64,000 nucleotides of DNA from Branchiostoma floridae (taxonomy: Eukaryota; Chordata; Leptocardii; Amphioxiformes; Branchiostomatidae), in the NCBI RefSeq assembly GCF_000003815.2, contig NC_049992.1, positions 13,369,105-13,433,104 of the forward strand, written 5' to 3'. Positions within the stretch are counted from its first letter, which is position 1, and each line of letters begins with the position of its first letter. Shown piece by piece: positions 11,778-31,273 of this stretch. The notes under the pieces are model-generated. The model was given only the letters and a program-made list of their open reading frames with translations. It did not search any database and was not told the DNA's origin. The position numbers and the translations under genes were made by a program.

Positions 11778-14700
11778 CTAAGGCCTCTTGAGCAAAGCCT
11801 GTGTGGAAAAGCAACAACAACAGTGTTACATTTTGTGAAAAAGGAAATCGAAGGTTCAATAAAAATAATGTCGGACAAGTTTTCTAAAATCCACTTGTCC
11901 TATTGGGCAAACACATGAAAAATTTTACTTACCTGGACCAATTTTTCACTTGCCCGAAATTCAAATGTCACTTCTATGTGCCTCTATTTTTCCATATTGA
12001 CCATTGCTTGATGTCATGACTGTAAAAAGTAACCAGTATATCAAAATCTTACTTGTCCGATCGGGCAAGTGGGGTAGGTCATGCACTTGGACAAGTTCAC
12101 TTGCCCTGTACAATAGGGCTAATGAAATCCAACCCTGAATGTGCAAGAACAGCACAATATTGGTACTCACGCTGTACTTGAGCGGTTGGTCGTTTGCCCG
12201 GAGTGTGACCTGTACTCTGCTGAAGTACGTCAGGACCTGCGTGGCCGGCTCAGGGTGTTCTGGATCTTCTGCCCAGTTCAAGGTCAACTGGGGACGGCCA
12301 TTGACCTTCTCAAAGTCATAGCTCTTCAAGGGGATGGCCTGTGGGTCAAAGGTGAACACAATCAACCAATCACATAAAACTGACAGTCAAAGACTTTTAC
12401 ATCATGCTGCAAACATTACATGCTGACATTTTCCAGTCATTATACATATATTTGTAGAAGAAATATTTGTGTTTGTTTCAACAGTGAAGTAGAAATTCAA
12501 TACTCACATTGCAGTATGCCCTTTTGACGACCCCCAGTCTCCACACCAGTACGTCCACAGCCTGGTCCAGTACTCCCATCACCATGCCGTCCTCCTCCAG
12601 AGGACCACACTCCTGTAAACATCAGGGCACAAGATGTCAGGACTAAAGAGAGATGGATGGCAGTTGTATCCAGTATTTGATTATACGGCTACTGGGGTCC
12701 CTGACACAGGGGTAGGCAGCAATTGGATAGTCTTTACACCGCACTTCCATGCAGCTCCGTCCAGCAGGCTTACCCTACATAGACCGTACACCTTGTTGTC
12801 CCTACTAGTACATTCCATTCAGGATTTCCTTGGTCTCCCACCACCTCTGTTGCCTGACAATTTCAATTCGGTGATGGTTTTGTGACAAACATCACAGAAA
12901 ACTTCAACACCATACAACATTTCACAAGGACTTAGTGTTGACACTGACCTTGACAAAAGAGGCAAAGAACATGTCGGCACTGGCCTCCTGCACCCTCTTG
13001 GATGCGTCCTTCCTGTCATTACAGTGGTCTGTCATACCCTGTAGCTCCTCAGCAGACTTCTCCACAGCAGGACCACAACCTGGGATTGTCACACAGACCA
13101 TCATGTAATCATGACCATAACTAAATTTCCGAAACTTTAAGGACTGGTGGCAAGGTGTTTTTGTGCTTAGGGTTGTATACTAAAGTATACTAAAGAACCA
13201 ACCACACTCATTGACAACAGAAGGAGTCGTGAAGGGTGTGAGTGGATGAAACCTTAAAGTCCAGTCTGTCTAGTGATGACTGCTCCTACTTACTGCACAA
13301 GACAGTTATGTTATGCCTAAGCAGATCATAAGAAAAGAACTTTGCAAAGACCTGAGTCAGCTTACAGATGTGCCCTATGTGGCAGAGACTGCCATTCTCG
13401 TATAGGATTGTTCAGTCATAGTCAAAGGGCTGATATCAATTAGGATTTTACCATATTGACCAAAAGAGGCCATATATGTAGGGTGGCTTAGGCCTGGGTC
13501 ACATTTCCAAAGCGGGGCCCGGCCGGGATGTTTTAAGAAACAAAAAATCAAATTGTATACCTAGAAAATACACAAATTATGCCCTTGGATCTTATTTTGA
13601 CATTTTGTGTATTTTGATGCCTTTATATAATTTTTTTCGCTCCAATAGCCCTTGTTTAAAATGTGACCAAAGGTTATGCAAAACAGACAAGCAAACAGAC
13701 TTCTGGTATACTGTATGTTATTCACAGTTCTCCTGTACTTACCCAGACATGCCCCCAGCAGCCTGTGCACCAGGACATCAGCGTATCTCCTGATGGGTGA
13801 GGTGAAGTGTGTGTACAGAGGCACGTTCAGGGCGTAGTGATGGTACATCCCTTCTTCTGGTAGGCAGCCGCTGCAGAAGTACTTTGCAAGCTGCGAAAAA
13901 AGAACAAAAAAAAAACATTATAAAACCTTAGAATAGTCAAAGTTTGTTGCAATTTTTTGCCATTTGTGTAGTTAAATGTGAACAACAATCAATGATGGTG
14001 AACAAGCTTAAAGTGCATGGATACATAAGTGCAACAGAAGTTTAAACTACATGTACAGTACATTTGTACAGTACTAAATATAATGACATTATTAATATAC
14101 AAACAGCATCAAACCATCAGATTAACTGCCCTAGCAACAGCTCTTAAAATTTGTAGAATTATTTTCCAAGTAGCAAGTCTATACCATAGGCTTACCTGCA
14201 TAGGTTTAGATGCCATGGCAGTCAGGATGTAGAAAGTGGCCTGTGTCTCCACATCATCCCCAATGTAACGGGCAATGGATTGCTGAAAACCAGAGTAAGA
14301 CGTCATTGTATCATCTTTCCAAACTGGTGAATAACATTGGCATCAGATCTTAAAATGTATTACAAACTCTTTGGGGTGCAGTTCCTTTTCTTGGTGATCT
14401 ACATCAATAAAGGTTTGACATTCACGTAATTTTAAAATACCAGTAGGATACACAATACAAAAGTTACTTTTACATGTATGTATAAGTTTTGTAACAGTCA
14501 GGACTTTCAGATAGTGCTCACTCTATTTTGTCAGTGACAATATGTATGCACCAACATAGGCAAACAGTATACACTTGTCACATGTGAGAACCTGCAGCTC
14601 ACTTACATGTAGAGCCCCAGAGCTGCTGATGTCCAGGTTAATCCCCATTGTTCCACAGGTCTTTACCAGGTCCTCCACCATCTTGGGCTGGGGAGGGGGG

Positions 14701-17700
14701 TGGCGCCGCAGGACAGCTCGCTCCGGGAATGATTCGTGGATCTTGTGAGCCACCGCCATGTTGGCCAGCAGCATGAACTCTTCTATCAGCCTGTTGGGAA
14801 TCAAAATTAGCAAGGATATTGATTACAACCCCTTTCAAATAGAGTCTATGACAAGCAACCAAATATTCAACCTGTTGCTGAAAAAATTTTATAGATAAAG
14901 AACATAAGTTTTTACAATTTAAGTGTTTTGTTGTGCTTTAAATTGTGAAGCATACACTATTCCAATTACAAAATTAAGGGTCACACAAATCTAAGTTTGG
15001 TTGCTCATCTGGTGTAGAGGGGCACTGAATTTGTAGAAAAGCGCAGAGCTAAAGCTAAGTTTAACACTAGTACATTTTCTTTACTTTTGGGATGAAATGA
15101 TCATAACTGCGCTTTTATTCTAATTACATGTGGATACCCCTTGAAGAAACTTCCTGTCTATCCTATGCCAGTGTACAAACAAAGCCCAGATGTAAAAACC
15201 CAGTTCCATTTCACCAACCTGTTGCTGTCTCTGATCTGGTACACAGAGCAGCCGTTGGGCAGTCCTGACTCAGGGTCCAGGGAGAATGCCAATTTGGGCT
15301 GCAGAGAAAGAAAAAAAAGATTAGATAGCTTTGAGGATCTTGACAATCTCTTGCACTTGTTTGGTACTTGGATGAAAGTGACAAGTCTAACTGAATAAAC
15401 TTCATGACTGAGTTAAGCAGACCTTCACATTGGTAAAATCGTGTAATAAAATTATATAGTAGCTATGCAAATAAAATAATATACATGTACCTACAATGTA
15501 CCTTACCCTACCTGTATGTCACACAAAACAGGCTGAAAAAAAACATGTTTCCTACCTGGTCCAACCTCAGAGCTCCTCCGTCAAATCTCTTCTTTCTCAA
15601 GTTCTGAGAGATCTGCAAAAGACATAATGACAGTTCTGCTTCATCTGAACTTATAAAACATACATCTGGCCTTGCCTTCCAAAACAGGTTTTCTTGTATC
15701 TGATAAAAGTGCCTGTGTTTGCAATATGTTATTAAGGAATAGCACATAGCTTTTATTGTAAAAAGACAAAAACAGCCCATGAATTTGCTTTGTTCCCAAT
15801 GATAGAAGATAAGACATACCTTGTACAAGTTGAGAACCCTCTCTGCCACATCCTGTATAGAGTGCCCATCAGAGATGGTGGGGAGCTGCTCCTGGGTGGG
15901 GAGCTGGTCAGGGTTATCGATGATGCTCTGGGCGTGGTCGTAGCTCAGCTTCACGCAGGATCGGATGATGGTGCGGCCAAACCACTCATCCAGCACGTCT
16001 CCGGTCTCTGTCAGCTTCCAGATCACAGAGAAGGCCAAACGCTCCTGGGGTGAACAGCAGGTCAGATTAACTTACTGTCAAAGTAGGCACACAAAAAAAT
16101 TTAAAGAAAATTTATGCGCTCTTGGTGGCAAATGTGCAGATGTTGGCACACTGCAGCTGGAGCACCATATCCGTGTATTTTTGGCACGCCTTTTTGACAG
16201 ATAAGCCAAAGAGGCTCTGTGGGCATCACTCCATCGTCATGGTGCATGCACATTTTAAGTGTAGGGCGTACATCAAACCCTGGGCCTATTGGTTCCGAGT
16301 CGAATGCTCAAGTCGCTGTGCCACACAAGACCTCATGATCACACAAAGTAGATTCTACTGCAATATAACAATGGTGTTTTCAGGAAAAGGAAGAGTAATT
16401 ACAAAAACATACATGCAAGGAAATGTAGATCACCCTACATTTGAAGAAACATTTTCATCTACTGAAATATAAAATGACTGTACCTCAGCAGGGTTCAAGC
16501 TGCATAGTTGTTCACACAGTAGGCGGGGCAGCATGGGAATCACCTGCAGACACAAACACAGAATCTCATATGTTAAACATCAATCTGTACAATTCTTAAC
16601 TTGGTCTGGTACTTTTTATTGCAAATGAAATGATTAAATTAATAGTCTGACAAATTCTAATAAGGCACATGCATTGCAGTTCACCTGTGACAGCATTTCT
16701 GGACTCAATTTACTATTAATGTGGAAGTGATTTGAGTCGGACAAGATGTGATTTGATTCCAAACTTTGATACCCTTTTATAATTTCTTTCCTGTTGTACA
16801 CAACACCTGAAAATGTTGCATCTCAATTGAAGTTGAATGATGATATGTATATGATTGACATGATTGTTTGTCCCAAGGCAGATATATTGTATGACCCACC
16901 TTCTGTACCAGGTAGACACTTGTAGCTCTACAGGCTGCTGTCAGGTCCAGGGCTGTGTTCTCCTGGATGAAGTAACTCACATCTGCTATGTGAACACCCA
17001 CCTCATAGGTACCTGCCAAACACAAGAAAATAGTTTATGCTTGGTGGAATGTAGCCTCGCTGTACTTTAACAGATACTACTTGGCCATTACAAATGTCTG
17101 AAATGTAGCTTTGAAAACATTAGTTTTAAGGAGACACATCTGCTATGTGAACACCCACCTCATAGGTACCTGCCAAACACAAGAAAATAGCATTTATGCT
17201 TGGTAGAATGTAGCCTCACTGTACTTTAACAGATACTACTTAGCCATTACAAATATCTGAAATGTAGCTTTGAAAACATTAATTTTAAGGAGATTTACAG
17301 GTGAAATTCTTCAACATATACACAATCAGGACTTGAAATACTTTTTTCTGCATACCTGCACAGGTGCAAGTAACATTGAAAATTACCTACACCAGATAAT
17401 CTTTACCTGCACCACTTTGAATTTAGAACTCTGGATCAAACAAAAATTGTTCAGGAACCATTTCTGTTTTTTCTTCTATATACTTTATAGGTTGTAACAG
17501 TTTGTGCCACTAATAACAATCCACATACACCTTCATCATAGGACATTTATGTATAAAACCCAGTAAATGGACCAGTGCAGGTTAGGTGCAGGTTGACACC
17601 AGAAATACCTGCACAGCTCCAATTTTACCTGCACTAACCTGCATATGCAGGTGGTATTTCGAGCCCTGACAATGCATGGGGAAAATAAAGTTTGGATGGT

Positions 17701-20700
17701 AATTACACACATACAACAGACACGCGGTACTGTTACTGTTATGGCAAATCTTTTACAGCATGTCAACAATATTGTACCTTAGATATAATGTGTACTGCAG
17801 TAATTGAAGGATATTAATCTCAGAGTTGAAAGTAAATATTTATGTCTAATATGATATTTCATCCCCTCCAAGTACTAGTATATATACTATAGAACTGTAA
17901 GTTTTTTTGGGTAACCAACCGTCATCAAGTTTGTTACAGGACACAGCATCGTCCAGGTCCCTCGCTGTGGCTGGGTCAATGGTGAAGATACAATCCAGTC
18001 TGAGGTCCCTCCTGTTCTCAAACTCCTCCTAGCAGATAAAAACAGAACAGCAGACAAAATTTGAGTAAGTTTTAACAGAAACAAAGGCTCATACGTTAAG
18101 TTTTACAATGCATAAATTTTAGGTATCAATCTTAAGTTCCACACTTAAAAGTACAAAATTGATACCAAATATATTAAACATAGAAAAAAAGTAAGTGTAA
18201 TAACTTACAGCTGGAATGGACCATGGTAAATCTTGTGGCAGGCACTGTAGAACCTATAACAAAAGGAATCAAAAGCTCTTATTACAGTATAGTACATTCT
18301 CCAATGACTCATGAACTAGCACAGGTGCTTTTCTCAGTTACTTATTACATTAGAAACACAACTGTTTATGAATCAATACACTAACAATTGACATATTAAG
18401 CTTTCCATTGAAGGTAAGGTACATAAACCGTGTAACCAAAAGGAAGTAGAGAACGTACCACTTCGCTGAACTCGGAAAAGTCCACCCCATTCTCCACCAG
18501 TAAGCCTTCTGTCTCAGGCTCAATCTGTCCAGCCTCTCCCAGGCTCTTTGCTAACCTCCTGTGTATTAGTATAAAGGCAAGGGTCAGAAAAACAATTCAC
18601 AAATCTCTTTTATATCAAACACATACAGTGACATGTTACATCATTGATTGTGCCATTCGGCTGGAGATATACATTGTATAATATATGTCAGATGTACATG
18701 TATGTCGATGAAGGTTAGACATCCAGGTAATAAGATATGCCAAAAACCAGTTACTGAAGCAACTGGATATGATTTTGGAAACGGTCAGACTTTTCAAACA
18801 CCATCTGGTGTCTTTCGTCAGTGACACTGTGTCACTGACGAAAGACATTGGATGGTGTCTGAAATGTCTGACGGTTTCAAAAGTCATATCCAGTTGCTTC
18901 AGTAACTGTTTTATTGGGCGTATGTCAGATGTAACTATTGGCATTATATATTGAGTGTGATGCACAATGAACTCGTGTATATACAGCATCTGCAGGGATG
19001 GAGATAGCATACAAAAATCTATTATTTCATGAGGTTAAATAACAAAAAGGTCCATGATTTCTTGAACCAGTATCATCCAGAAGTAATAGGAGGCTTAGTA
19101 GACTTAAGTGATATTAACCAAGATCTGTATCATGCAAAATGGTAAAGGTTTTAAAGCACTCTTCTGCATTTTATAAGAAAAGAGAAGGGACACCTACGCT
19201 TCAGCAAACCCAGAGTCCTCCTTCCAGTCCGTTATTCTGGCGATGAAGAGGAATTTGGCGTGATCTTCTGGTCGTTCCTTGAACCCTGCGGGACAGTCCT
19301 CCAGCGGGACCTTTAGCCTGGGCAGGCGATGGTCGATGGGGGAAAACAGAACCTTCTCCCTGTCCTGTCACAAACAAAAAACACTTCAGGATCATGTGGT
19401 GTTCTTCTGTTATATCTGAATAGCAATGTATGGTATATCATTTTAGCAATTTGATGCCATTACACATACCCTCAGCTCATTTTTCCTTTTTATCATATAC
19501 TTACAGGTCAGTATGACATGTACTGTGACACTATTTTATGCAAATATCAGATTTATACCAGATTGACTTAAGCCACATAATCTATAATGGAGTGACTGGG
19601 AAATGATATGGGTTTTCAGAACTCTCCCCAACATATGCGATTACATGGAGCTGTCGTGCAAATAGCTGGAGTCTACTGTACTACATTTGCTTCTGGATTC
19701 TTACATTATACTTACTGATAGCTTTGTCATTTTCAAACATCGAAGCCAGAAAACTTTGAGTCCTCACCTTGTCATCCAGCTTCTTGAGGTGGCCCGTACA
19801 GGCTCTGGAATGTTTCTTCTCATAGATGTAAACTACCTGTAGGGGAATAGAAGGGACAATTAATCGTTAAAACAACACAACCAAGGATTGTGAAATATAC
19901 AAGATCCATTCTTTCATTAACATTCACAAAGTTTGGATTATACAGACAGTCATAATAGGCATAGAAAAATAATAGCTTAAAATATAAATGCAGACAGCAG
20001 GAGTTACAAAGTCTATCCCTAGACGACATACAAGACTGATTAAAAAAAAAGAAATTTAATCAATCTAAATGACAGTTATATTTCCCCCTCAGTGATACCT
20101 CAACAGAGGTTTCAGAGCAGTATCAAGAAGAAGAAGAAGAAGGAATACAATCATGTATTTCCAAATTGTATGTTTCAAAAGAATAAATCTGACTGAGGCC
20201 AGAAATAAGTGGAGCCACACACTGATCATCACTTAGGCCAAGGGGGAAAATGTTGTATTTCCTATTTCAATACAATACAAGTTAACAATGTCAAACTTTG
20301 ATTTTGTGTATAGTGGTTTCAAATCCTTGGATACACTGAATTTTCATTAGATAGGACAAACAGGTATTTTTTTTTTACTTGAACAGGAAGCAGGCTGAAT
20401 AAGAGTTCTAACTGTAAACTACCTTTTGTATGTGGTCGGGAAACAGGAAACACAACATTTTTTCCCTAGGCCTTAGTTCCCTAAATAAATTATACTGACA
20501 CATTCACTACACCCCCCACTTGTTCTGTCATCCACAATCTGGGACCAAGCTAACAATGCCAACCTTGGTACTAGTCCAAAACTTTGCCCTAGACTACACC
20601 TCTGCTAAGTGACCATCAAATTTTTAACTTTTTGATAATATTCAAATGTAGTAAAATTACATGTCAAGTATTATATTTTTCAAGTTCTACCTACAATGCA

Positions 20701-23604
20701 AACATCCTTTTTTATCATCTCATCTCCTGCTATGATTTTATACACTCAGTCACTCAATTAGTATCATGTACGCTCACCTTGGCAGTTTTCTGCAGGAATT
20801 GTTCAGGAACAGTGGTGGGGTCGATACCTGGTTTCTCAGCTGCCTTTGGTGTCTTAGCAGACCCCGCTTTAGGAGGTTGTCTTCCTAAAAAGGCAAAGAA
20901 TTTCAGTTAATGAAAACCTGAATCCCAACAGTAACAAGACAATGTCAACAACTTTCAGGACTGCATACATCCCTATGGGGATTATCTCAGTTACAAAAAA
21001 GGATTGTAGTCCCAAGGACTTTGTTTCAAAATAAAATAAGAAAAAAAGTAGCTTACGAGATAGTATTGACCAGGGGTTTAGCCAGCGTCCGTTTTTCCGT
21101 CAATTGACGGAAATTTGCTGCGTCTGACGGAAAAATTTTAAAACCAATCCGTCAACCTTGACGGACAAAAATCCTTGGTGGAAGCTACAGGCGGCTTGGG
21201 GACGCCGTCCACGGCCGTAAAAGCCACACACTGTTTGTTTTGCTATTGTTATGATTGTTGACAATGTGTGTCGGCGCGCTTTCGCATACGATAATCTCAT
21301 TAAAACCCGTTTTTCAAGGTCTCAGTTCAGTCCTTCTAATCAATTTTCGCGGTTTTCGCGACAATTGTAATTGGCTGACGGAAAAAAAATTCGAGCTGGC
21401 TAAAGCCCTGGTATTGACACATTAATATGAAAACATACAAATGTATGTTCATTACGAATGTATGTACATAAGCTTTCATTGCTAACCTTTAGGTGTTGTT
21501 TGTTCCCCAGGCTTCAATCTCCCGGCCTTATCTGGGGTTCTGGTGGGTGTCCTCGCTGCTGCACCCTTTGCTGCCGCGCCCTTAGCTGGTGTTTTTGCCC
21601 CCTTTCCAGCAGGATCTTTCTTTTTTCTATCGTTCTTCACTCCGACTTCTTTTTCCGATGATTTTGAGGAGTCGCTCTCCTTGGGCGACCCAGCAGTTCC
21701 ACTGGAAGATGCAGCATCCCCACTGCCTTCTGTAAGTGGAGACTGCGGTCCAGCAGTGGTGTCTACTGCTGCCTGGGCACCTGCTGGTTCAGGTGTGCGT
21801 AGTGCTAACTGCTTCATGCCTTCTGTCAGCTGTGTCATTGGACTGGTACCATCGGAAGTTGCAGCTGTCTTAAGATTTTTAAAAAGTTCATATTCCTGTT
21901 GTAAGACCTGTAACAATAGTGTACGGAATGCTGTAATTCAGGAAAGGATATATTATACAAAAAAATATCTGTTGATATGTATTTTCGTCAGTTGTTTTGT
22001 GCAGAAACTTTCAATAGTGTTTTATGTATATACTCTTGTTCAGGGCAGAACAAATGTATTCACTTATTCTGTTCCTTCAGCATTTGTGCACTCTTATTAT
22101 GTAAACCATTAAGACATACAACAATAACAATAGACAATAACTTTTTGCAATGCCATGTGCTCCTTATAAGTTATACAACAAGCATAATTGTGCCATTAAA
22201 AAGCTGGATTGTCATATGAAACTGCAAACTGAATGCTTTTCTTAGCTCCCCCACACCTCCCACAACCAAACTAGCAAGAGTTCATACAAACAATTTCAAC
22301 TTGTATCCCCCCTCCCCCATGAATTCTTGAGTGTAATCTTCTGCATTATTTTGCACATGTGCCTGACATGAGTTCCTCCTGTGGGAGTGTGCAGGTGGCA
22401 GCTCAGTTAGAGACAGTGATAGGGAGAGCCGTGTGGGCTGACTGTGATCTGGGACAAGTTGATACAGGTTTGGAGTGCTCGACAATCCAGGCATACCACA
22501 CATAATGACTGAAGCACCAAATATGAGACCTCAGGGTCCACGCATCATGTGTCACAGGACAGCCATGTGGGCAAATGATCCCACTGAGTCATTAGAGTAG
22601 ATAGACTTTCAACATAGTCAGGCTACATGTACAAGTATATCTGATTCACATTAGGGAAAGCATGAATAAAAGGGGTTTTATCTTTTCTGTTTTGTCTCTT
22701 ATAACAATCAATCTATTGCTATCTCTTGGCTCTCTAACAGTTTATCACTATCATTGAGTTAATACTATATTGAGTTAATACTATAATAGTAACTTTACGT
22801 GTTTTCAATAGTCACTGATCGAAGAATCATTTTATTAACTTATACTATAGGACTCCATGTAATTTGTATCTCTGCTATATTTTATTTGGCCCTTTTCCCC
22901 TCATAACCTCATAAAAGCGACCTGCAGGCCGATTTGAGCCTCTCATGAATAAAAAAAGGTTCAAACAAACAAACATACAAACAAGACCACAATGAATTGT
23001 TCTACTATCCACTTACCCTCCACTCAGACCTGGGCAGTACCTTCAGCACCACAATGTCCCCGTTCAGGGCTCTGTTACGAGCATGCAGCCCCGGGATGTA
23101 CAGGTCTGACATGCCATCCTGTAGGGTGAACAGGGAACAATAAACATAACATCTTACAGTTACACCATGCTATCTGGACATCTGGTAACAAAACATATAC
23201 ACTGTAGACAACTTTCTAAATGTATGATATGTGTGAAAGCCTTTTTTATTTACAACAAGCAGGAACTGATCATGGGCTATAACCATTAAGTCTTGATATA
23301 ACATTTTACACCTAATAATATGACACCTAACATAGCTACACAAGTGAAAACAGATAAGTAGAGTATAAAGACAAAAATATGTAGTTTAGACTGAGTTGCC
23401 TTTTTGCACATTATAATCGCAGTTTGAAATAACATCCTAAAAATCAAATTAATGGTTGTGATATGCAAATCTAATGCTACTCACCGGAGCAGGAACATAG
23501 GCATCTTCAAAGTTCCTGGCGTTGATTCTCAAGGCACCCTTGATAAAGTCTCCTTTCTTCAACCCCTCTGCCACGGCTTCTCTACTGATGTACTGCTCAA
23601 AAGG
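11778..23604 (-). CDS. DIS3L2: DIS3L2 catalytic portion (cold-shock, RNB and S1 domains)
   Basis: These 21 exons alone (about 872 residues) span nearly the length of vertebrate DIS3L2 (about 885), lacking only its short divergent N-terminus. Approximate positions within this part: first cold-shock half 1-74, insert 75-250, second cold-shock half and CSD2 251-375, RNB domain 378-735, S1 775-866. The final coding exon is tiny (21 nt, 11778-11798) and encodes ALLKRP-stop, matching the conserved LKYSAxLKRP end of the family. The acidic residues of RDLDDA are intact, so the enzyme should be active. The insert exon (21487-21907) is rich in Ser, Thr, Pro, Lys and Ala. Confidence 0.9.
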
Positions 23605-26600
23605 CTGTCAAAGGAAAAACAATGCATCAAAATCAGTACTTTTTTTCCATAGTAAATTAAAAGACTTTTCCAATTTGATGACAGTCTATAGATTTAAATG
23701 AAACTCAGCAAACTTAGTAGAATCAGAAAACTTGGGCTGTAATTCAATGATTGTTATTACCCTTTACATGAGGTGATTATTACCTGCATGCCCCTGCCTG
23801 GAGTCCTGCCTGGTGTTGGGGCTCCCTTCCCACTTGGAGTCTTAGCCTTGTTCTTCATGACTGCGTCCTTGGCTGCAGGTGTTGCCGGCGCCTTTGGTCT
23901 TGCCTTCAGGCCAGGTGTGGCAGGTGCCTTGGCCCCAGCCTTTGGGGCAGCCTTAGCAGCACCTGCTACAGGGGCAGACTTTGCCCTTGCAGGTGTAGCT
24001 GGTGTCTTCTTCTCTGCAGCTGACTTGGCTGCAGCTGCAGACTGCGCTCTAGGTGTTGCCTTCCCTGCGGCACCTGTGGCATCAGCCTTCTTTGCTGCAG
24101 GTACTCTTGTGGCAGGTGTTGCACCTGTTTTCTTTGCAGCAGATGTAGTTGCTGAGGCAGGCCTCCTTGTGGCTCCCAGGGCAGGCTTCTTATCGGCAGC
24201 AGCTGTTTTGGCAGAGGCAAGCCTTGTTGCTGTGTCTGGCTTCTTCGTTGGTTCCTTCTTTGCTGCAGTAGCTGATGAAGGTCTTGCAGCTGCCCCAGTT
24301 TTGGCAGCAGCTGTTCTTGTTCCCAGGGTGCCAGCCGGCTTCTTGGCAGCTGTTTTTGGCTCTGCCTTCGGTGCAGCGGCACCTGCAGGTTTGGGTCGAG
24401 CTGTCCTCGTCGGGATACCAGCCTTCTTCTCTGCAGGCTTTTTTGCAGCAGCAGAAGGTTTTGGGGTTACCTGGTCGCCAAGAGCAGCAGCAGCGTCCAC
24501 AGCTACCTCAACTGAATCCACCGACGCTTGTTCCTCAGCACTGCTCCCTGTTGCTGCAGCCTTTGTCAAAGGTTTGGGTCTGGCTGCACCTGGCTTGCGG
24601 TCTGTTTTTGTCTTGGGTACTGCCCCGCTAGGTGGCGCCTTTGTGGTCTTTGCCGGAGCACTGGCAGGTTTTGCCGCCCTGGTGGCTGCAGTACCTGTGG
24701 TCTTGGCAGATGGCGCTGTTGCAGGCCTGGTGAGCTTCTTAGTTTTCGGTTCTGAGACAGATGATGGCTTTTTCGTTGGTTCTGCAGCCTTTGTAGTCTT
24801 AGTCGCCCCAACAGCACCTAACTTCTTCTTAGCAGGAGGAGCTTCTTTTGACACAGACGATGGCGGGGTGGGTCGCTTGGTGATATCCTTCCCAGCAGGC
24901 TTTGCAGCAGCAGTTTTCCCTGGAGGTTTAGTCTTCGGCGCAGCCTTGTCAGCGGTCTTGGTTTTGGCAGCTGCCGCAGCTGCAGGCTTGGCTTTCTTCA
25001 CCTTCTCTTCTGCCTTAGCTTCCTCTGGAGGCTTTACTTCAGCACTGCAAGAGTGGAGAAGAGTTTAAAAATACAGAGAGATGGTTCGTCTGAACATAGA
25101 ATACACAACAAGTTTGGCAATTGTCAGTATGAAAAGAAGATTGAAAGGGTCTAGAGTACGATACACTCTACCAGCATCCCTTTCAACTGCATACATTTGG
25201 TTGGTTGACATGAATTGTAGATGTACATGCCTAATGCTTACAGTTACAGTTACATAATAAAATTAATGAGCCCTGAAATTTTGATGTGCTATTGTAAGAC
25301 CCCAAAGTTACACCCCCATAAGTATAATAGGATAGGCCAATGGCCCAGAGAGGACAGAGACATTCTGGAACCAGAACTGGATTAGACCAGATTTGTACAG
25401 TAAGCTTTTGTATGCACCCAATTTTGCATGAAATGTCAATGGAACTTGAAGGGTCAGCTATCATTATTTGTTATTCAGTCACTGACAATTTACCTTAACT
25501 CCATACATACATGAACACAGGCATACTGTAGTTATCCTTATTATATGATACCTTAGTGAAATATATGGGTGACTAAATAACAATACTCAATAGCCTTTTG
25601 TACATTTGTAAACCGTGACATATTACTCATATACAATGTTTACACTTTATCCTGACTGTAGCACAGAGATAGTAAAACCTGCTGGATTAGATGTCATAAA
25701 GCCTGCATGTTGTTTACTAGAGAAGGAACATTATACAGGATGTGGGCAGCCAGTACACAACTGATAACAGGCCAGAAAATTTTATCAGTACAGAGAGAAT
25801 GCTTCTGATATGATAATGTAGATCTTATCATAGTTTTCAGTTTCCTAAATGCTGAATATCTTAAGTATCCAAAACATCAAATCATTTTAACAGAATTATT
25901 TCTAAGGCTGCATTTTATGAAAAGTTTATGATTATTACATAATGTCAACAAAGATGGTATTGGTGGTTAGTCCTTGTCAGTTTCCAGCAATCCAGGCTTG
26001 GGATTCATATGCTTTCTATTTTTACACAGAGGAGAGTTTACTTATCAAAATAGCTTGCCCTGGTGGCCTGGTAGTCACTCTAGTGTCACAATACTGAAGA
26101 AACCTCAGTACACATTTGAACACACAGACACTGGAATTACATGCATACATGCACTGCAAAACCACGAAATTTTACAGTAGGGTAAGCCACATGGGTATGG
26201 TTTGTAAATTGTTTTTATACTGGCTAAATGAACAATCTAAAATTTACATACCATACTAGTGCTTCATACTTTCAAACCTTAAATGATCAACAAAGACTAA
26301 ATACTTTCTAAAATTCTTGATTTCACTGATAAGATAGAATATATAACTTTTTACTATACAGCCCTTTACTGTGTATCTACTGCATATCAAAATTCAGAAT
26401 ATCATAAATAATACTTACACAGCTTCAGTCTTTGGTGCTTCCTCTTTCACCTGTAAAAGTACACATACATGCAACATTATTTGGTGGTATGTTTAACTGG
26501 TTTTCCCTCCTATATGTAATAGTCAACAAAATCAGACAAGCACTATATCATGTTGAGAGAGGAAGTCCCTCTTTGTATAAATGTAAATTTATTTGTATAT

Positions 26601-29600
26601 AATCCTGGCTTAACACGGACATGTGCAAAAGGCAGAAAATTGACCTCTTTGCTCAATGGCACCTGTAATTGTAACAAGCCATTTAACTTCCTGTAGCAAT
26701 GAAGCAGAAAATCTGTGCAAATTTGCGCCAAAATTTAGGTCAGCCAATCTTTAATGGAGTAGTGTCCAAAAGGGTTAAACTACATGTACATGTAGATACC
26801 CAAACGTACATATAACATCAGATACAGCAGTTTAGATATAGGCACTAGTAATAGTATGAAGCCCTATAGTACCTAAAAGCAAGGTGCTTGATAAAAGCTC
26901 CTTGCTAAAAGTTTGTTATTTTTCATCTTGTCTAAGTGCAAAAAGATGCTGTATTTTCAACAAAACAGATGGTGTTTCTGCATTATATCATTTATAGAAT
27001 TAATGTCTTTGGTTGTGCTTAAAACAAAGAGAGGGGACAGTGAAGAGAAATAACAAAGTAAAATGTTATCTTACTTCTTCTTTATCAACAGGTTCTGCAA
27101 CCACAGCAGCTGTAAACAGAATCAATAAAAACATAATCAGTAAAAAGTTTATACAATTGGACACAATATGTATATGACTTAAAATCTTTGGCAAATATCA
27201 CACTCAAAGGATGAAATTTTAAGGAAGAATGATAAGGTTTTTATGTAAGCCCCAAAACCTTGTGGTGTGACATAAAGAAAAGGGAAATGCAAAGTGTCTT
27301 CCTTTTGCGGGTATATCAATGAAGCTACAGCTGAGCAATTTGACCTAGCGCTCAACAAGTTGTATTGATAAAAAATGTATGGTTTTATGCCTTGTGTGTT
27401 TTGTTGTCTTTCTATTCATACTTGTATGCTTTGTATAAGCCAATATAAAGTCAAGGGCAATACAAATTAGATTTAGGATGCAGCAGCACTGTTGACATAC
27501 ATGTATGGCAGCTTATGTGAGATACCCGCTTCAGCATGCAATGGTTTTAGTAGGGGGATTTCGCAATATTGTTATATGCTATGTAATAATACAATGTATG
27601 TTATTAAGGTGCACATGTATACAAGCAAAAGAAGTTAATAACATGCCAGTGAAGTTAGAAGGAACCACATGTAGCATAATAAGCAATCTATCACTACAAA
27701 GCTGCAGTAGGCTAATGGCACTAATCTACACTACCTTCTACTACATACATATAACTTACTACATACATAACATTTTTATTACATGTACTTTAATTTAAAT
27801 GCAATTCAAAAATTTTAGTAGAGTAGAATACTGTGTAGTAAACATTTCTTCAAGGAAAAAGATATGTCATGGAGTTTGATATGAGAACAAAGCCATGAAT
27901 GATTTTATAAAAAAAAGTTGCTTTTGTATGTATTGGGTTGTATGTGATCTCTAAGAAATCTACCAAATACTAATATAGTATACTGTAATACTACATATCC
28001 TTGTAGTAAGATTGGGATGACAATGCATTCTGTGAGCATGACTGCAAAGACAGCTGCTAGCTCGGGAAGGGGGAGTTACAATACATTATAACAGATATGG
28101 CACGTACTGTGGACATACAAGCATTGTTAATGATGTGAGGTTAGTAGGTTGCAGCATATTGACTCAGAGAGCAGTGCTTGGCAGGGGGTACAGGCTTGCT
28201 CATGCAGCTAGGACAAACAAAAAGCAGCACGGCAGCTACATGAGCAAAGTAGTCTCAAGTTCAAGCATACACTGCACACAGAAGCCACACGTCAAGTACC
28301 TTCCACTTGCATAGCTTCTGGCTCAGGCACTTTCTCCTCAGCTCCCACATCAACTTGGACAGGAGGAGCCACAACTGCATCCTCCAAGCCACCAGCTCTC
28401 TCTTCAGCTCCCACAACAGGAGGAACCTCGGGCACACCCTCCACACCAACAGCTTTCTCTTCATCCCTATCCAACACCTCTGTCGCTACCTCGGCTGCCT
28501 CCATTCTCATTCCTTCATCCACAACGCTTTCCATCGCCTCTTCCACAATTTCTGCAGCTTTGGCCGTATCCGTGGCAATCTGCTCCACTTCCTGTTCCAA
28601 CTTGCCCGTCTCCGTGACAACCTGCTCCACATCTTCCATCCACTTCTGCTGCGCAGCTATGGCTGCCATCTGGGCCACCTGTTCCGCCTGCCTCGCCTCT
28701 TCTACCTGGACCTGGTCAGCAATGACGTCAGGGGGTGCAACAATTTGTTCATCAGTGATATCGTTGGGTGCCGCCTCGAGCACCTCAGCTTCCATTGCGA
28801 CTGTCTCTATGTCTCCTGTGCTGGCAGTTTCCACACTAACTAGGAACTCATCATCTGGCTCCACCTTGGGTACTTCAGACACCGTGATTGCCGGGATGTC
28901 TGATGTAGGTGAATCAGGTGCTATGGCAGGTACCTCCTCCTCTAGATCTGCTTCTTGTTCTGGCTGACTTGGTTCAGATTCTGTGGGAGTTACTTCAGGA
29001 GTGCTCTCACTCTCCTCTGGTATGGTAGGCACTCTGATGTCTGCCATGGGGACGGGAGCAGGCTCGTCTGGAGGGAACACCGCATCAAATGGCTGGGCTT
29101 CTCCTGCCACATCCGATACATCAGCACCTTCCTCCAGGATGGGAGCTTGGTGTGGGGCAACAGATGGTTCCAGTGGTGGGTCGTCACTGGGGAAAACTGC
29201 ATCCCAGGCCTGTGGTTGTCTCTCCTGCTCAGAGAAAGCAAAGCTCTGCATACTGTGCTGTTGGAAGTCCCTGTCCCACGTTGACGCCTCAGGCGTTTGG
29301 GGCGACTCCGTCTCCACCTTGTCATCTACAGCACCACCCTGAACATCAAACCCCCAGATGTCATCAGTAGCTGTTGGTGCTGCTGCTGCTGGCTCTCCCC
29401 AGGGACCCTCCTGGGGAGGGGGGCCTACCTCTGAGGAATCCCCCTGGCTCGCAGGAACCTCCTGTGGCATCTCTGCGTCTGGCTCCTTCACTGCCAGATC
29501 CGAGAAGAAGTCAGCATCTTGGAATCCAGAAGGAGGAGGACCTGTTTCTACCAAAGGATCCTGTTCAGAACCAGTGGTCAGTTCTGGAGGTAACCCTTCC

Positions 29601-31273
29601 TCAATCAGAGGGTCTTGCTCTGCTAATTCGTTGAAGGGGTCGTACACAGCTTGTGGCATTTGTTGATCTTCTCCTGCAACACCAATCTCTTCAACAGGCT
29701 GTTCACCAGATGGCATTGCCTCAGTTACCTCCATGCTTTCTTTTTCTTCTTCCATTCCCATGATTAACATTGGCTCTTCACTTGGGGCTACATCACCGAG
29801 GTCTTCCTTTTGTCCTTGAACTTCTGGGACAGCTGTTGCTTCCGCATTACCATCCTCTTGCCTCGGACTCTTTGGTACCTCTTCTTCCTCCATCTCATCA
29901 CCTGGTACAAACTCAAAATCCGAGGTCTCTGTGATTTCTGCATCTTGCACAGAGTCCTCCAAGTCTGCCTCTCCAGGTGTGGACACCTCTTCACTACCTG
30001 TTATCTCCTGTGACACATCTTCTATCAAATCCTCTGGCTCCTGCCGAGCTCCTAGCAGGGCCTCTATTGTAGCCTGCTCTGATAAGAAACCTTGCTGCTG
30101 CCCCTCCTCAGCCTCTTGTGGAGGGGTATCTACAATTTCTGCCTCTATGTCGTCAGGACCAACATCTTCAACTTTTGGCTGAGACATGAGCGCAGCAACT
30201 TCTTCTTGCCGTTTTGATTGTGCTAGTATTTCTTTCACGACATCATTTACATCTTCCTTCTCTGTCACTTCGATTTCATGTTTCTCCACTCCATCTCCAT
30301 TTACTTTCATGGCTTCTGCCCCTTCAAGCTCTGCAACATCGGAAGGCACGACTGGCTCTTCAGCACCCAGTGGTGGTTTGGGATGCTCTGGGGTACTTGG
30401 TGAATCAGAAGATATTCCTCCATCTCCTTCCGACTTCCTCTTCTTTCTCTTTTTCTTCTTTTTCTTACCTTCTCCCTTTTCTTTCTCCTCTTGAATGACA
30501 CCTGGTGAATCTAGTTGACCAAAGGCAACCTCTTCAGGTGCCTGTTTTTCTGGACTTAATTCAGGCACAAGCTCTTCAGGCACAAAGGGCTGGGCAGTTG
30601 GGTCAAAGGGTTTAGCATTTGGGTCAAAAGGTTTTGCAGTTGGGTCAAAGATGGGAGCATTGGGGTCCAGAAAGGGTATTAAAGGGTCAAAGGATGCGAC
30701 ATTGGGGTCAAATGGCTTTGCAGTGGGGTCAAAGGATGGCACATCAGGGTTAAAGATGGGTGCTGTTGGCTGGAACGGTGGCGTGTTTGGGTCCAGCGTC
30801 GGTTTAATAACTGGATCAAACGGTTTGGCTGTTGGGTCCAGAAGTGCGAAAGGTTTAGCGTTGGGGTCCAGCCCTGTTGGCTGGTCTGAGCCTCCAGGAG
30901 AGGGCGTTCCCTCGGCTCCGGCCGGGCGAGGGGTCATGTCGAGGGGACACTCCTCGCAGTCAGGTATCAAACATACAGGTGTTCCTGTCACAGGCTCCGA
31001 GGGTGGGACCTCGTCATCTCTGTCCCCAAACTGTAGGTCCTCTGGTCTTTTGGGTATGTCTATCGGTTCCACAGTTGGTGCCTGTCCGAAATCCAGAGCA
31101 GTTCCACCGTTCATTTCCCCAGGCACTGGCATATCCCCCATCATGGGCACCACTTGGTCTGGGTCTACAGGCTGCCCAAATCCTGCCTGGAAATGTGCCT
31201 GTCCAAAGTCTATTCCTTCAAGTTCCATAGGCTTCTGAACGTCTTCAACGCCCTTTCCTTCTTCCTCAGCCAT
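11778..31273 (-). CDS. DIS3L2: DIS3L2 exoribonuclease with a giant acidic/basic N-terminal extension
   Basis: Coding exons in transcription order: 28300-31273, 27075-27109, 26419-26450, 23784-25044, 23485-23604, 23017-23118, 21487-21907, 20778-20884, 19768-19836, 19198-19364, 18459-18558, 18209-18253, 17920-18028, 16900-17012, 16484-16543, 15820-16044, 15556-15612, 15219-15298, 14607-14790, 14196-14282, 13743-13890, 12949-13079, 12508-12612, 12171-12338, 11778-11798. All phases agree; the total is about 2,306 residues. The last about 872 residues match DIS3L2: cold-shock region starting [14 protein letters not shown] and split by a low-complexity insert; RNB nuclease domain with the metal-binding cluster [16 protein letters not shown], then [32 protein letters not shown] and [21 protein letters not shown]1-like C-terminus ending LKYSALLKRP-stop. 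DIS3L2 degrades uridylated RNAs 3' to 5' in the cytoplasm, independently of the exosome. The residues upstream of PFEQYIS are described separately. Whether all transcripts carry them is unknown. Confidence 0.85.
11880..12140. repeat. Probable interspersed repeat just upstream of the last coding exon
   Basis: Contains repeated CTTGTCC/GGGCAAG words in both orientations (for example CCACTTGTCC, TTCACTTGCCC, CTTGTCCGATCGGGCAAG). This is typical of a small inverted-repeat-rich mobile element. Ends were not defined with confidence. Confidence 0.35.
13491..13620. repeat. Interspersed repeat related to the one at 50760-50880
   Basis: GGGGCCCGGCCGGGATGTTT followed by an AAGAAACAAAAAATCAAA-like tract resembles the CGCCCGGCCGGGTAGTTTG stretch with GAACGAAAAATATGAC at about 50788-50825. 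Two dispersed copies suggest a repeat family. Confidence 0.45.
14870..15010. repeat. Interspersed repeat related to the one at 33540-33710
   Basis: Shares CAACCAAATATT, AAGGGTCACACAAAT and similar intervening AT-rich sequence with 33540-33710. Both copies lie within introns of the same gene. Confidence 0.4.
16240..16350 (-). repeat. Possible tRNA-derived SINE fragment
   Basis: On the minus strand the sequence reads TGTGGCACAGCGACTTGAGC followed by CCAGGGTTTGATGTACGCCC, resembling degenerate A and B boxes of a tRNA-derived SINE. It resembles the clearer copy at 59330-59410. Confidence 0.35.
16978..17291. repeat. 157-bp tandem duplication containing part of a DIS3L2 exon and its acceptor
   Basis: Copy 1 is 16978-17134 and copy 2 about 17135-17291, with only a handful of differences. 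Each copy holds the first about 35 nt of the [12 protein letters not shown] exon plus its acceptor and upstream intron. Only copy 1 is followed by the rest of the exon. Copy 2 is an orphan acceptor with a truncated exon. Confidence 0.88.
17327..17668. mobile_element. Non-autonomous DNA element with terminal inverted repeats
   Basis: Left end CAGGACTTGAAATAC and right end GTATTTCGAGCCCTG are imperfect inverted complements. The interior has several direct and inverted ACCTGCAC/GTGCAGGT motifs. There is no coding capacity, as expected of a MITE-like element in a DIS3L2 intron. Confidence 0.55.
18748..18908. repeat. Long near-perfect palindrome (hairpin) in a DIS3L2 intron
   Basis: Left arm begins CAGTTACTGAAGCAACTGG; right arm ends CCAGTTGCTTCAGTAACTG. 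The centre is GTCAGTGACACTGTGTCACTGAC, so there is almost no loop. The arms are about 80 nt with few mismatches. It looks like a foldback/MITE element. Confidence 0.85.
20131..20142. repeat. (AGA)n microsatellite
   Basis: Short AAG/AGA triplet run in an intron; simple sequence. Confidence 0.6.
21070..21411. mobile_element. Non-autonomous DNA transposon with TIRs and target-site duplication
   Basis: Ends CCAGGGGTTTAGCCAGC and GCTGGCTAAAGCCCTGG are inverted complements with one mismatch. The element is flanked by TATTGA on both sides (21064-21069 and 21412-21417), a likely 6-bp target-site duplication. The inside is rich in TGACGG/CCGTCA motifs and has no transposase ORF. Confidence 0.75.
23784..27109 (-). 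CDS. Lys/Ala/Pro-rich basic exons of the DIS3L2 extension
   Basis: Three exons (27075-27109, 26419-26450, 23784-25044) encode a short acidic bridge ([19 protein letters not shown]) and then about 420 residues dominated by Lys, Ala, Pro and Thr. Recurrent words are AKPA, TKAA, PAKKT and AAAK; it ends [17 protein letters not shown]. The composition resembles linker-histone tails or the proline-rich basic region of MAP-type proteins, but I see no tau-type repeat or other domain. The 3' border is CAG|GTAATA, phase 0, joining PFEQYIS of DIS3L2. If that intron were retained, a stop follows within seven codons. A Met inside this exon ([11 protein letters not shown]) could start a short-N-terminus DIS3L2. 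Confidence 0.7.
28300..31273 (-). CDS. Acidic repeat-bearing 991-residue exon of the DIS3L2 extension
   Basis: One very long exon starting [15 protein letters not shown] in good context (AACGATGG). It ends QVEG with donor G|GTACTT, phase 1, continuing to the exon at 27109. Regions: residues about 130-230 carry a degenerate seven-residue repeat ([21 protein letters not shown] and similar); about 268-280 is a Lys/Arg cluster like a nuclear signal ([11 protein letters not shown]); most of the rest is Glu/Asp/Pro/Val-rich and probably disordered. No enzymatic domain is visible. The acidic-then-basic arrangement resembles MAP4/MAP2-type proteins in composition only. I do not recognise a specific family. 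Confidence 0.75.
30583..30876 (-). repeat. 21-bp coding minisatellite (heptapeptide repeats)
   Basis: About fourteen degenerate units on the plus strand of the form TTGGGTCAAAGGGTTTAGCA encode DPNAKPF-like heptads on the minus strand. Units vary in length and keep the frame. Slippage-prone. Confidence 0.8.

What the first reader, a model, noticed from the sequence alone, without database searches (positions are those of the whole stretch)
11778..31273. DIS3L2 appears fused in frame to about 1,430 residues of acidic and Lys/Ala/Pro-rich sequence
Seen: the splice donor of the basic exon (23784, CAG|GTAATA) and the acceptor of the first DIS3L2 exon (23604) are both phase 0. The three upstream junctions (phase 1, 0, 2) are also consistent, so one reading frame runs from the ATG at 31273 to the DIS3L2 stop. 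Known: vertebrate DIS3L2 has only a short N-terminus before the first cold-shock domain. Inference: this lineage gained a giant disordered or polyelectrolyte module that could tether the RNA-decay enzyme (for example to microtubules, RNA or condensates). Otherwise two genes share exons, or read-through links neighbours.
Basis: partly seen in the sequence, partly recalled or inferred. Interest (0 to 1): 0.75.

Follow-up and report, generated by a model that had tools for sequence, protein, structure and literature searches.

The report
RNA-decay enzyme with giant charged tail
In this animal genome the gene for the RNA-shredding enzyme DIS3L2 reads in one frame with a 1,434-residue, mostly unstructured, acidic-then-basic front section that carries an old repeated motif resembling a docking site for poly(A)-binding protein; whether cells really make the joined protein still needs RNA evidence.

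Summary
A 25-exon minus-strand model (31273..11778) has GT-AG at all 24 introns and one 2,306-residue frame: 1,434 extra residues, then a complete DIS3L2 with its active-site stretch. No transcript was available. The joining donor (23784) is weaker than 19 of 20 DIS3L2 donors, and short alternative first exons exist by sequence, one with a strong donor, so the junction is inferred; I put about 0.65 on one gene with a giant N-terminus. The acidic exon holds an old heptad array, [L/F]-D-P-x-A-x-x-F-x-P (11 units, 30874-30578), whose kept positions are the anchors of PAM2, the PABP-docking motif; the same genome's Ataxin-2 carries two overlapping PAM2 units of the same geometry. But Asp replaces the usual Asn, and Pfam scores stay below cut-off. 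A second basic tract lies in the CSD1-CSD2 linker. Proposed mechanism: disordered recruitment arm plus electrostatic RNA clamp; PABP docking is testable and unproven. A tau/MAP2/MAP4-type microtubule tether is not supported: no tubulin-repeat signature in the window.

The parts
28300..31273 (-). Exon 1: start codon plus acidic, disordered exon (991 codons + 1 nt, pI 4.05)
30578..30874 (-). Heptad array, residues 134-232: 11 units [L/F]-[D/N/Q]-P-x-[A/V/T]-x-x-F-(x-P) plus 2 degenerate units; PAM2-like
30434..30466 (-). [11 protein letters not shown] run, residues 270-280; possible nuclear/nucleolar signal or RNA patch
27075..27109 (-). Exon 2, 35-nt microexon ([12 protein letters not shown] with the flanking base); skipping it breaks the frame
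26419..26450 (-). Exon 3, 32-nt microexon ([10 protein letters not shown] + 2 nt); skipping it breaks the frame
23784..25044 (-). Exon 4: basic Lys/Ala/Pro/Thr-rich exon (420 residues, pI 10.84, net +65); its last 9 residues align weakly (2 identical) with the DIS3L2 N-terminus of 8e27
23485..23604 (-). Exon 5: first DIS3L2 exon with homology support, start of CSD1
23017..23118 (-). Exon 6: rest of the homologous part of CSD1
21487..21907 (-). Exon 7: CSD1-CSD2 linker with a second basic tract ([33 protein letters not shown] at 21631-21533)
20778..20884 (-). Exon 8: end of linker ([10 protein letters not shown]...)
11778..19836 (-). Exons 9-25: CSD2, RNB and DIS3L2 C-terminal domains; the stop codon TAG is the last three bases
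17945..17977 (-). RNB active-site stretch [11 protein letters not shown] in exon 13 (18028-17920), [11 protein letters not shown] in 8e29

Best explanation
One gene encodes a 2,306-residue DIS3L2: a 1,434-residue intrinsically disordered N-terminal arm joined in frame to a complete 3'-5' exoribonuclease. The arm is charge-segregated: an acidic half with a heptad array, then a basic Lys/Ala/Pro half that abuts CSD1; a second basic tract sits in the CSD1-CSD2 linker. Most likely mechanism: the basic tracts on both sides of CSD1 act as an electrostatic RNA clamp that raises RNA affinity and residence. The acidic half acts as a recruitment arm and intramolecular competitor that keeps the basic part off non-target RNA. 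The heptad array docks a partner, the best candidate being the MLLE domain of cytoplasmic poly(A)-binding protein, placing the nuclease on mRNAs whose short, uridylated tails are DIS3L2 substrates. Because the two microexons are 35 and 32 nt, skipping either puts a stop ahead of the nuclease, so microexon splicing could gate its production. Shown: the open frame, splice-site and phase consistency, intact enzyme, charge layout, age of the array and conservation of its residues. Inferred: that the full transcript is a main product, RNA clamping, autoinhibition, PABP docking, microexon gating.
For: Gene model: 24 of 24 introns GT-AG, one frame. Enzyme: matches DIS3L2 chain 8e29 over CSD1 and from CSD2 to the end (E 9.9e-296); Pfam RNB, OB_Dis3, Dis3l2_C_term and Rrp44_CSD1 above cut-off. 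In residues 991-1476 the only in-frame Mets are M1410 and M1433; the next, M1477, lies inside CSD1. No AATAAA/ATTAAA on this strand between 26593 and 23250. KTP and [RK]TP occur in exon 4 (2 and 3 times) and in the DIS3L2 linker (2 and 5) but 0 times in residues 1-991 or 1685-2306. Array: 6 matches to [LPF][NSD][PVT].A..F.P against a mean of 0.003 in 2,000 shuffles of exon 1. Over 13 units pS is 0.72 and pN/pS 0.46: 0.27 at positions 3, 4, 5, 7 and 0.72 at 6, 8, 9. In the same genome a locus with LNPNAKEFNPSAKPFVP, two overlapping PAM2 units sharing a Phe at the same 7-residue step (second unit FNPSAKPFVP against [10 protein letters not shown] here), is Ataxin-2 by its LsmAD domain upstream (33.6 bits, cut-off 25).
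Against: Donor 23784 is weak for this gene, and 3 of the other 14 phase-0 open GTs of exon 4 score higher. A fair scan for DIS3L2-specific first exons (donor at least as good as 23784, ATG at or below 28299) gives 14 of 504 combinations: 12 short ones of 1-13 codons in the introns, among them MYGVK (25508-25494) with a strong donor (8.27 bits, 8 of 9 consensus positions), and M1410 and M1433 in exon 4. Intron 1 has a plausible poly(A) signal pair (27794/27780; T+G 0.62 and 0.65 downstream, mean of these introns 0.51), so an acidic-only product ending ...VEGT is possible. Synonymous codon choice resembles DIS3L2 best in a shifted frame for exon 1 (in frame -0.02, shifted 0.19 and 0.07) and for exon 4 (in frame 0.13, shifted 0.26 and 0.02). 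For PABP docking: the strict pattern with Asn/Ser at position 4 has 0 matches, while all 9 cores I read at the 8 fetched PAM2 loci of this genome (12 matches over cut-off, 8 fetched) have Asn or Ser there. The array is not among the 13 PAM2 matches of the genome. Pfam PAM2 gives array pieces 10.2-14.0 bits (E 0.041-0.69) against a cut-off of 20, and nothing to the whole array; controls score 34.6, 39.5 and 42.4. PMC2854688 has position 4 contacting Glu587 of MLLE, which Asp could repel, and prefers Glu at 9, which no unit has. The PDB search found only RPB1/CTD, no PAM2 peptide. The K/R run (270-280) could send the protein to the nucleus.
Confidence: 0.42

Rival explanations
1. Two products from one locus: the acidic/basic module is made as its own protein (ending in intron 1, or after exon 4), and most DIS3L2 is translated from M1410 or M1433 near the end of exon 4, from a short first exon such as MYGVK at 25508-25494, or behind a non-coding first exon with its own promoter, giving an ordinary short N-terminus.
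For: M1410 lies 25 residues before the exon 5 junction with G at -3; DIS3L2 chain 8e27 has 49 residues before CSD1. First-exon candidates with donors at least as good as 23784 exist (14 of 504). Poly(A) signal pair 27794/27780 in intron 1. Weak 23784 donor.
Against: No poly(A) signal between 23784 and 23250. The upstream phases all fit a single frame. CpG observed/expected is 0.50 just upstream of ATG 31273 (32000-31501) and 0.18 in 24000-23501, but coding windows reach 0.47-0.48 as well, one of them inside exon 4 (25000-24501), so this says little.
Confidence: 0.28
2. The fusion is real but the heptad array has nothing to do with PABP: it is a CTD-like or low-complexity aromatic sticker array (F-D-P-T-A-K-P) that drives condensates or binds CTD-interacting-type domains.
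For: phmmer against PDB finds RNA polymerase II RPB1 or CTD peptides in 17 of 17 rows at E up to 10 (best 1.2e-19). Heptad spacing, an aromatic or Leu at position 1, Pro at 3 and Thr or Asn at 4 are shared. Asp at PAM2 position 4 in 9 of 11 units.
Against: The domains printed for the five best rows carry large bias terms next to scores of at most 23.4 bits. CTD S5-P6 is not kept: Ala at 5 in 8 of 11 units, Pro at 6 in 4 of 11. The overlapping PAM2 pair of Ataxin-2 in the same genome has the same geometry.
Confidence: 0.38
3. Microtubule tether of the tau/MAP2/MAP4 type: acidic projection domain plus basic proline-rich domain.
For: Overall layout (acidic, then basic K/A/P-rich) is like the vertebrate MAPs as recalled; composition.
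Against: No tubulin-binding repeat signature in the window's six frames; no Pfam hit for exon 1 or exon 4 at E up to 1; no PDB relative of exon 4 at E up to 0.01. Repeats elsewhere in the genome were asked for but the search did not complete.
Confidence: 0.05

Closest known systems
DIS3L2 (PDB 8e27/8e29, human, and 4pmw, mouse; species by recall)
   Same: CSD1, CSD2, RNB and C-terminal domain; active-site stretch; C-terminal end LKYSALLKRP against LKYSAILKRP
   Different: 1,434 residues before CSD1 instead of 49; CSD1-CSD2 linker with a Lys/Thr/Pro-rich basic tract
PAM2 motif proteins (eRF3, PAIP2, PAN3, Tob, Ataxin-2)
   Same: Array units keep hydrophobic 3, Pro 5, Phe 10, and mostly Ala 7 and Pro 12; neighbours overlap by sharing a Phe, as in eRF3 (Phe76; PMC2854688, parts 1-2 of 4 read) and as in the Ataxin-2 of the same genome (LNPNAKEFNPSAKPFVP)
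   Different: Asp at position 4 in 9 of 11 units, Pro/Ile/Ser at 9, below the Pfam cut-off; 11 units instead of one or two
Drosophila Dis3L2-Tailor (TRUMP complex)
   Same: Dis3L2 physically coupled to an upstream factor of the uridylation-decay route (PMC6344859, passages only)
   Different: There the coupling is to a separate TUTase; here the proposed coupling is a disordered arm in the same chain
Leishmania eIF4E4
   Same: N-terminally extended RNA factor that uses a PAM2 motif in its extension to bind PABP1 (PMC6379680, passages only)
   Different: Cap-binding protein, one motif MNPNATEFMP
RNA polymerase II CTD
   Same: Heptad with aromatic-x-Pro-Thr start
   Different: No S5-P6; Asp at position 2; 11-13 units

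Membership tests
DIS3L2 (RNase II/RNB family) | CSD1, CSD2, RNB and DIS3L2 C-terminal domains in order | tested here: met
   Pfam Rrp44_CSD1, OB_Dis3, RNB, Dis3l2_C_term all above cut-off
DIS3L2 (RNase II/RNB family) | Catalytic aspartates of RNB | tested here: met
   [11 protein letters not shown] aligned to [11 protein letters not shown] of 8e29 (that these Asp are catalytic is recalled)
DIS3L2 (RNase II/RNB family) | No PIN domain (unlike DIS3/RRP44) | tested here: met
   No Pfam hit in exon 1 or exon 4 at E up to 1
DIS3L2 (RNase II/RNB family) | Short N-terminus before CSD1, as in 8e27 | tested here: not met
   1,434 codons against 49 residues; a variable feature, not a defining one
PAM2 motif | Hydrophobic residue at 3, Pro/Val/Thr at 5, Ala at 7, Phe at 10, Pro at 12 | tested here: met
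   6 full matches with Asp allowed at position 4; of 11 units, positions 3, 5 and 10 kept in 11, Pro 12 in 10, Ala 7 in 8 (units were picked by pattern)
PAM2 motif | Asn or Ser at position 4 | tested here: not met
   Strict pattern 0 matches; Asp in 9 of 11 units; Asn or Ser in 9 of 9 cores read at 8 fetched PAM2 loci of this genome
PAM2 motif | Reaches Pfam PF07145 cut-off (20 bits) | tested here: not met
   5 of 8 short pieces hit with 10.2-14.0 bits, 3 of 8 none, whole array none; PAIP2 34.6, eRF3 39.5, superPAM2 twice 42.4, PAIP2 with Asn4 to Asp 26.2; a 28-residue piece of the second Ataxin-2 unit, first letter mistyped, 17.5
PAM2 motif | Binds an MLLE domain | not testable with these tools
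   Needs peptide binding; the search for this genome's own MLLE domains did not complete
tau/MAP2/MAP4 | Tubulin-binding repeats (PGGG) | tested here: not met
   No PGGG in six frames of the window
RNA polymerase II CTD-like heptads | Y-S-P-T-S-P-S with S5-P6 | tested here: not met
   Ala at CTD position 5 in 8 of 11 units, Pro at 6 in 4 of 11

The most novel reading that the evidence does not exclude
A 3'-5' exonuclease of the uridylation-decay route has been hard-wired to the poly(A) tail: an array of about 11 overlapping PAM2-like sites, with Asp in place of Asn, on a 1,434-residue charged arm docks DIS3L2 on PABP, merging deadenylation-stage recognition and final decay in one polypeptide, with microexon splicing as the on/off switch.
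Probability: 0.2. Interest if true: 0.78.

Novelty: new variant of a known kind. Interest (0 to 1): 0.5.

Why it matters
In flies Dis3L2 sits in a complex with the uridylating enzyme Tailor (PMC6344859, passages); elsewhere its targeting is thought to rest mainly on the U-tail itself (recalled). A natural DIS3L2 with a very large disordered arm and an old, conserved, PABP-motif-like array would give a direct handle on recruitment, and a natural test of whether polyelectrolyte arms change the choice of RNA and the processivity of an RNB enzyme. If the transcripts turn out to be separate, the locus is an example of a nuclease whose upstream exons host a second protein.

Tried and rejected
Tau/MAP2/MAP4 membership: not met, no tubulin-repeat signature in the window. 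Known domain in the extension: none in Pfam and no PDB relative for exon 4. Codon usage as proof of one gene: mildly against for exons 1 and 4. Similarity between exon 4 and the DIS3L2 linker as proof of common origin: only slightly above composition (6 of 500 block shuffles and 3 of 500 full shuffles reach the score), so only a weak pointer. My first scan for DIS3L2-specific first exons used a donor filter that the 23784 donor itself fails; repeated with a fair filter it found short candidates, and I lowered the one-gene odds from about 0.7 to 0.65 for that. Finding the overlapping PAM2 pair in this genome's Ataxin-2 raised the novel case from 0.18 to 0.2; Asn/Ser in 9 of 9 cores kept it from going higher. 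Papers: DIS3L2 with amphioxus 0; DIS3-like exonuclease 2 with Branchiostoma 0; DIS3L2 with MLLE 1; DIS3L2 with PABP and PAM2 2, the last two seen only as listings; an amphioxus fusion search (589 papers) showed 0 amphioxus occurrences in its 8 listed rows; a search on DIS3L2 N-terminal extension and evolution (812 papers, 15 listed) was used only as a listing, plus passages of one paper. That no PAM2-bearing DIS3L2 is in print rests over an open-access library only. PMC4574140 gave no usable passage.

The pN/pS test has an ascertainment limit: the 11 units were picked by the pattern [LF][DNQ]P...F, so the low value at positions 3-5 is partly built in. With the two degenerate units it changes from 0.42 to 0.46. 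The same DNA read in frame +1 gave 0.96 (12 stop-free units) and in frame +2 2.76 (4 units).
Full report
What was checked. I rebuilt the gene on the minus strand from raw sequence and spliced it in a script. There are 25 exons from 31273 to 11778, all 24 introns are GT-AG, and the joined frame is 2,306 residues long. ATG 31273 has a good context and is closed off upstream by an in-frame stop at 31297. The window lies in an assembly of 513,431,437 bases in 431 contigs, in which the first DIS3L2 exon occurs once at the DNA level (1 match).

The enzyme is complete. The 872 residues after the junction match DIS3L2 chain 8e29 over CSD1 and from CSD2 to the C-terminus (E 9.9e-296). Pfam finds Rrp44_CSD1, OB_Dis3, RNB and Dis3l2_C_term above cut-off. 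The active-site stretch [11 protein letters not shown] aligns with [11 protein letters not shown]. CSD1 homology starts at residue 50 of 8e27, so 49 residues precede it there against 1,434 here.

Is the upstream part coding? Exon 1 has no stop in 991 codons where its other two sense frames have 43 and 72, and GC by codon position is uneven (0.72, 0.41, 0.44). Exon 4 is open but so is one of its antisense frames. The two microexons (35 and 32 nt) are the only places in introns 1-3 that yield in-frame peptides made wholly of the A/E/K/P/V/D/T residues of the flanks (criterion set after seeing them). Skipping either or both gives a stop ahead of the nuclease. Against this, codon choice in exons 1 and 4 resembles DIS3L2 less in the true frame than in one shifted frame.

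Is the junction real? Acceptor 23604 is good (7.97 bits; 2.1% of 1,405 AGs score as high). Donor 23784 is weaker (3.07 bits; 14.7% of 1,187 GTs score as high) than 19 of the 20 DIS3L2 donors, though it matches the general consensus at 7 of 9 positions. The last nine residues of exon 4 align weakly, 2 identical, with 8e27 residues 40-48. No AATAAA/ATTAAA lies between 23784 and 23250. Candidate DIS3L2-only first exons with a donor at least as good as 23784 number 14 of 504 combinations with their ATG at or below 28299: 12 of 1-13 codons in the introns, the best being MYGVK at 25508-25494 (8.27 bits), and the two that start at M1410 and M1433 in exon 4. I put about 0.65 on one gene with the extension as a main product; this is a judgement, since no RNA data were at hand.

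What the extension is. FoldIndex is below zero in 1,228 of 1,335 windows of 100 residues of the extension, against 42 of 523 in residues 1685-2306. Residues 1-991 have pI 4.05; exon 4 (420 residues) has pI 10.84 and net charge +65. A run [11 protein letters not shown] lies at residues 270-280. The DIS3L2 CSD1-CSD2 linker (exon 7) has its own basic AKTPAKG...RTPTRTP tract. Exon 4 and the linker share KTP/RTP motifs that are absent from residues 1-991 and 1685-2306, though overall similarity is only slightly above composition.

The heptad array. Residues 134-232 (30874-30578) hold 11 units of [L/F]-[D/N/Q]-P-x-[A/V/T]-x-x-F plus two degenerate ones. Tandem Repeats Finder sees a 21- or 42-base period only over part of it (30583-30739). 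Over 13 units pS is 0.72, while pN/pS is 0.46 overall and 0.27 at positions 3, 4, 5 and 7. The array is therefore old and its residues are kept, with the caveat that units were picked by pattern.

The kept positions are the anchors of PAM2 as defined in PMC2854688 (parts 1 and 2 of 4 read): hydrophobic 3, Pro/Val 5, Ala 7, Phe 10, Pro 12. Neighbouring units share a Phe, as the two overlapping PAM2 motifs of eRF3 share Phe76. The same genome offers a closer parallel. Of its 13 PAM2 matches (12 over cut-off with neighbours counted) 8 were fetched, and one reads LNPNAKEFNPSAKPFVP: two overlapping units with the same seven-residue step, the second (FNPSAKPFVP) differing from an array unit ([10 protein letters not shown]) at three of ten positions. 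That locus is Ataxin-2: LsmAD lies upstream at 33.6 bits, cut-off 25.

Against PAM2: all 9 cores read at the 8 loci have Asn or Ser at position 4, where 9 of 11 array units have Asp. With Asp allowed the array has 6 full matches against a mean of 0.003 in 2,000 shuffles of exon 1; with Asn/Ser only it has none. Pfam PAM2 gives 10.2-14.0 bits to five of the eight short array pieces tried (two of four, three of four), none to the other three and none to the array given whole; the cut-off is 20. Controls: PAIP2 34.6, superPAM2 twice 42.4, eRF3 39.5, PAIP2 with Asn4 changed to Asp 26.2, three shuffled pieces 0 of 3. Since PMC2854688 has position 4 contacting Glu587 of MLLE and Glu preferred at position 9, Asp4 and the missing Glu9 count against binding. 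I file the array as PAM2-like, not as PAM2. The other resemblance found is to RNA polymerase II CTD heptads (17 of 17 PDB rows), which I take to be mostly spacing and composition.

Mechanism. Most likely the arm is a recruitment and RNA-clamping module: basic tracts on both sides of CSD1 hold RNA, the acidic half competes and provides docking, and the array binds a partner, PABP being the most specific candidate. Tails too short for PABPC (under 25 nt) are uridylated by TUT4/7, and such mRNAs can be degraded by DIS3L2 (PMC7988573, passages), so docking on PABP would place the enzyme beside its future substrate. All of this beyond the sequence facts is inference.

Compared with what is known. 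It is a DIS3L2 by every domain test; the extension makes it a variant. It shows no tubulin-repeat signature of tau/MAP2/MAP4. No paper holding DIS3L2 together with amphioxus, or DIS3-like exonuclease 2 with Branchiostoma, was found in the open library. Lineage distribution could not be tested: the genome tool has no relatives of this genome. Searches of the genome for a second DIS3L2, for MLLE domains, for tubulin repeats and for further copies of the array were sent but not answered (listed in Tried and rejected).

Noticed in passing
16978-17293: Tandem duplication of about 159 bp (95% matches) that copies the exon 14 acceptor and the first part of that RNB exon; use of the decoy acceptor at 17169 would read [14 protein letters not shown] and then a stop.
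   Followed up: partly
18744-18912: Palindrome with 84-nt arms, 89% complementary, 1 nt apart, in DIS3L2 intron 10.
   Followed up: no
21071-21410: A 340-bp CpG-rich insert in intron 7 (27 CpG, observed/expected 1.3 in 21500-21001) with inverted ends CAGGGCTTTAGCCAGC / GCTGGCTAAACCCCTG and an 8-bp flanking repeat GTCAATAC on both sides: looks like a young hAT-type non-autonomous DNA element (type by recall).
   Followed up: partly
L003; L010 (G000:C11, PAM2 at 5372779-5372826 +): Ataxin-2 of this genome carries two overlapping PAM2 units, LNPNAKEFNPSAKPFVP; [quoted passage not shown]
   Followed up: partly
27780-27794: Poly(A) signal pair in intron 1 with T/G-rich downstream sequence; could end an acidic-only isoform (...VEGT stop) that carries the array without the nuclease.
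   Followed up: partly
29429: A phase-0 donor (GAG|GTAGGC) lies inside the acidic exon and could splice in frame to exon 3 or exon 5.
   Followed up: no
51744-52109, 57100-57480, 58300-58824 (+): Pfam GHL10 (glycosyl hydrolase-like 10) matches above cut-off; two of them cover the same part of the model, so at least two copies. The family is, as recalled, mainly bacterial.
   Followed up: no
4525-5028 (-): TNFR cysteine-rich repeats (Pfam TNFR_c6, E 3.8e-15), a TNF-receptor-like gene downstream of DIS3L2.
   Followed up: no
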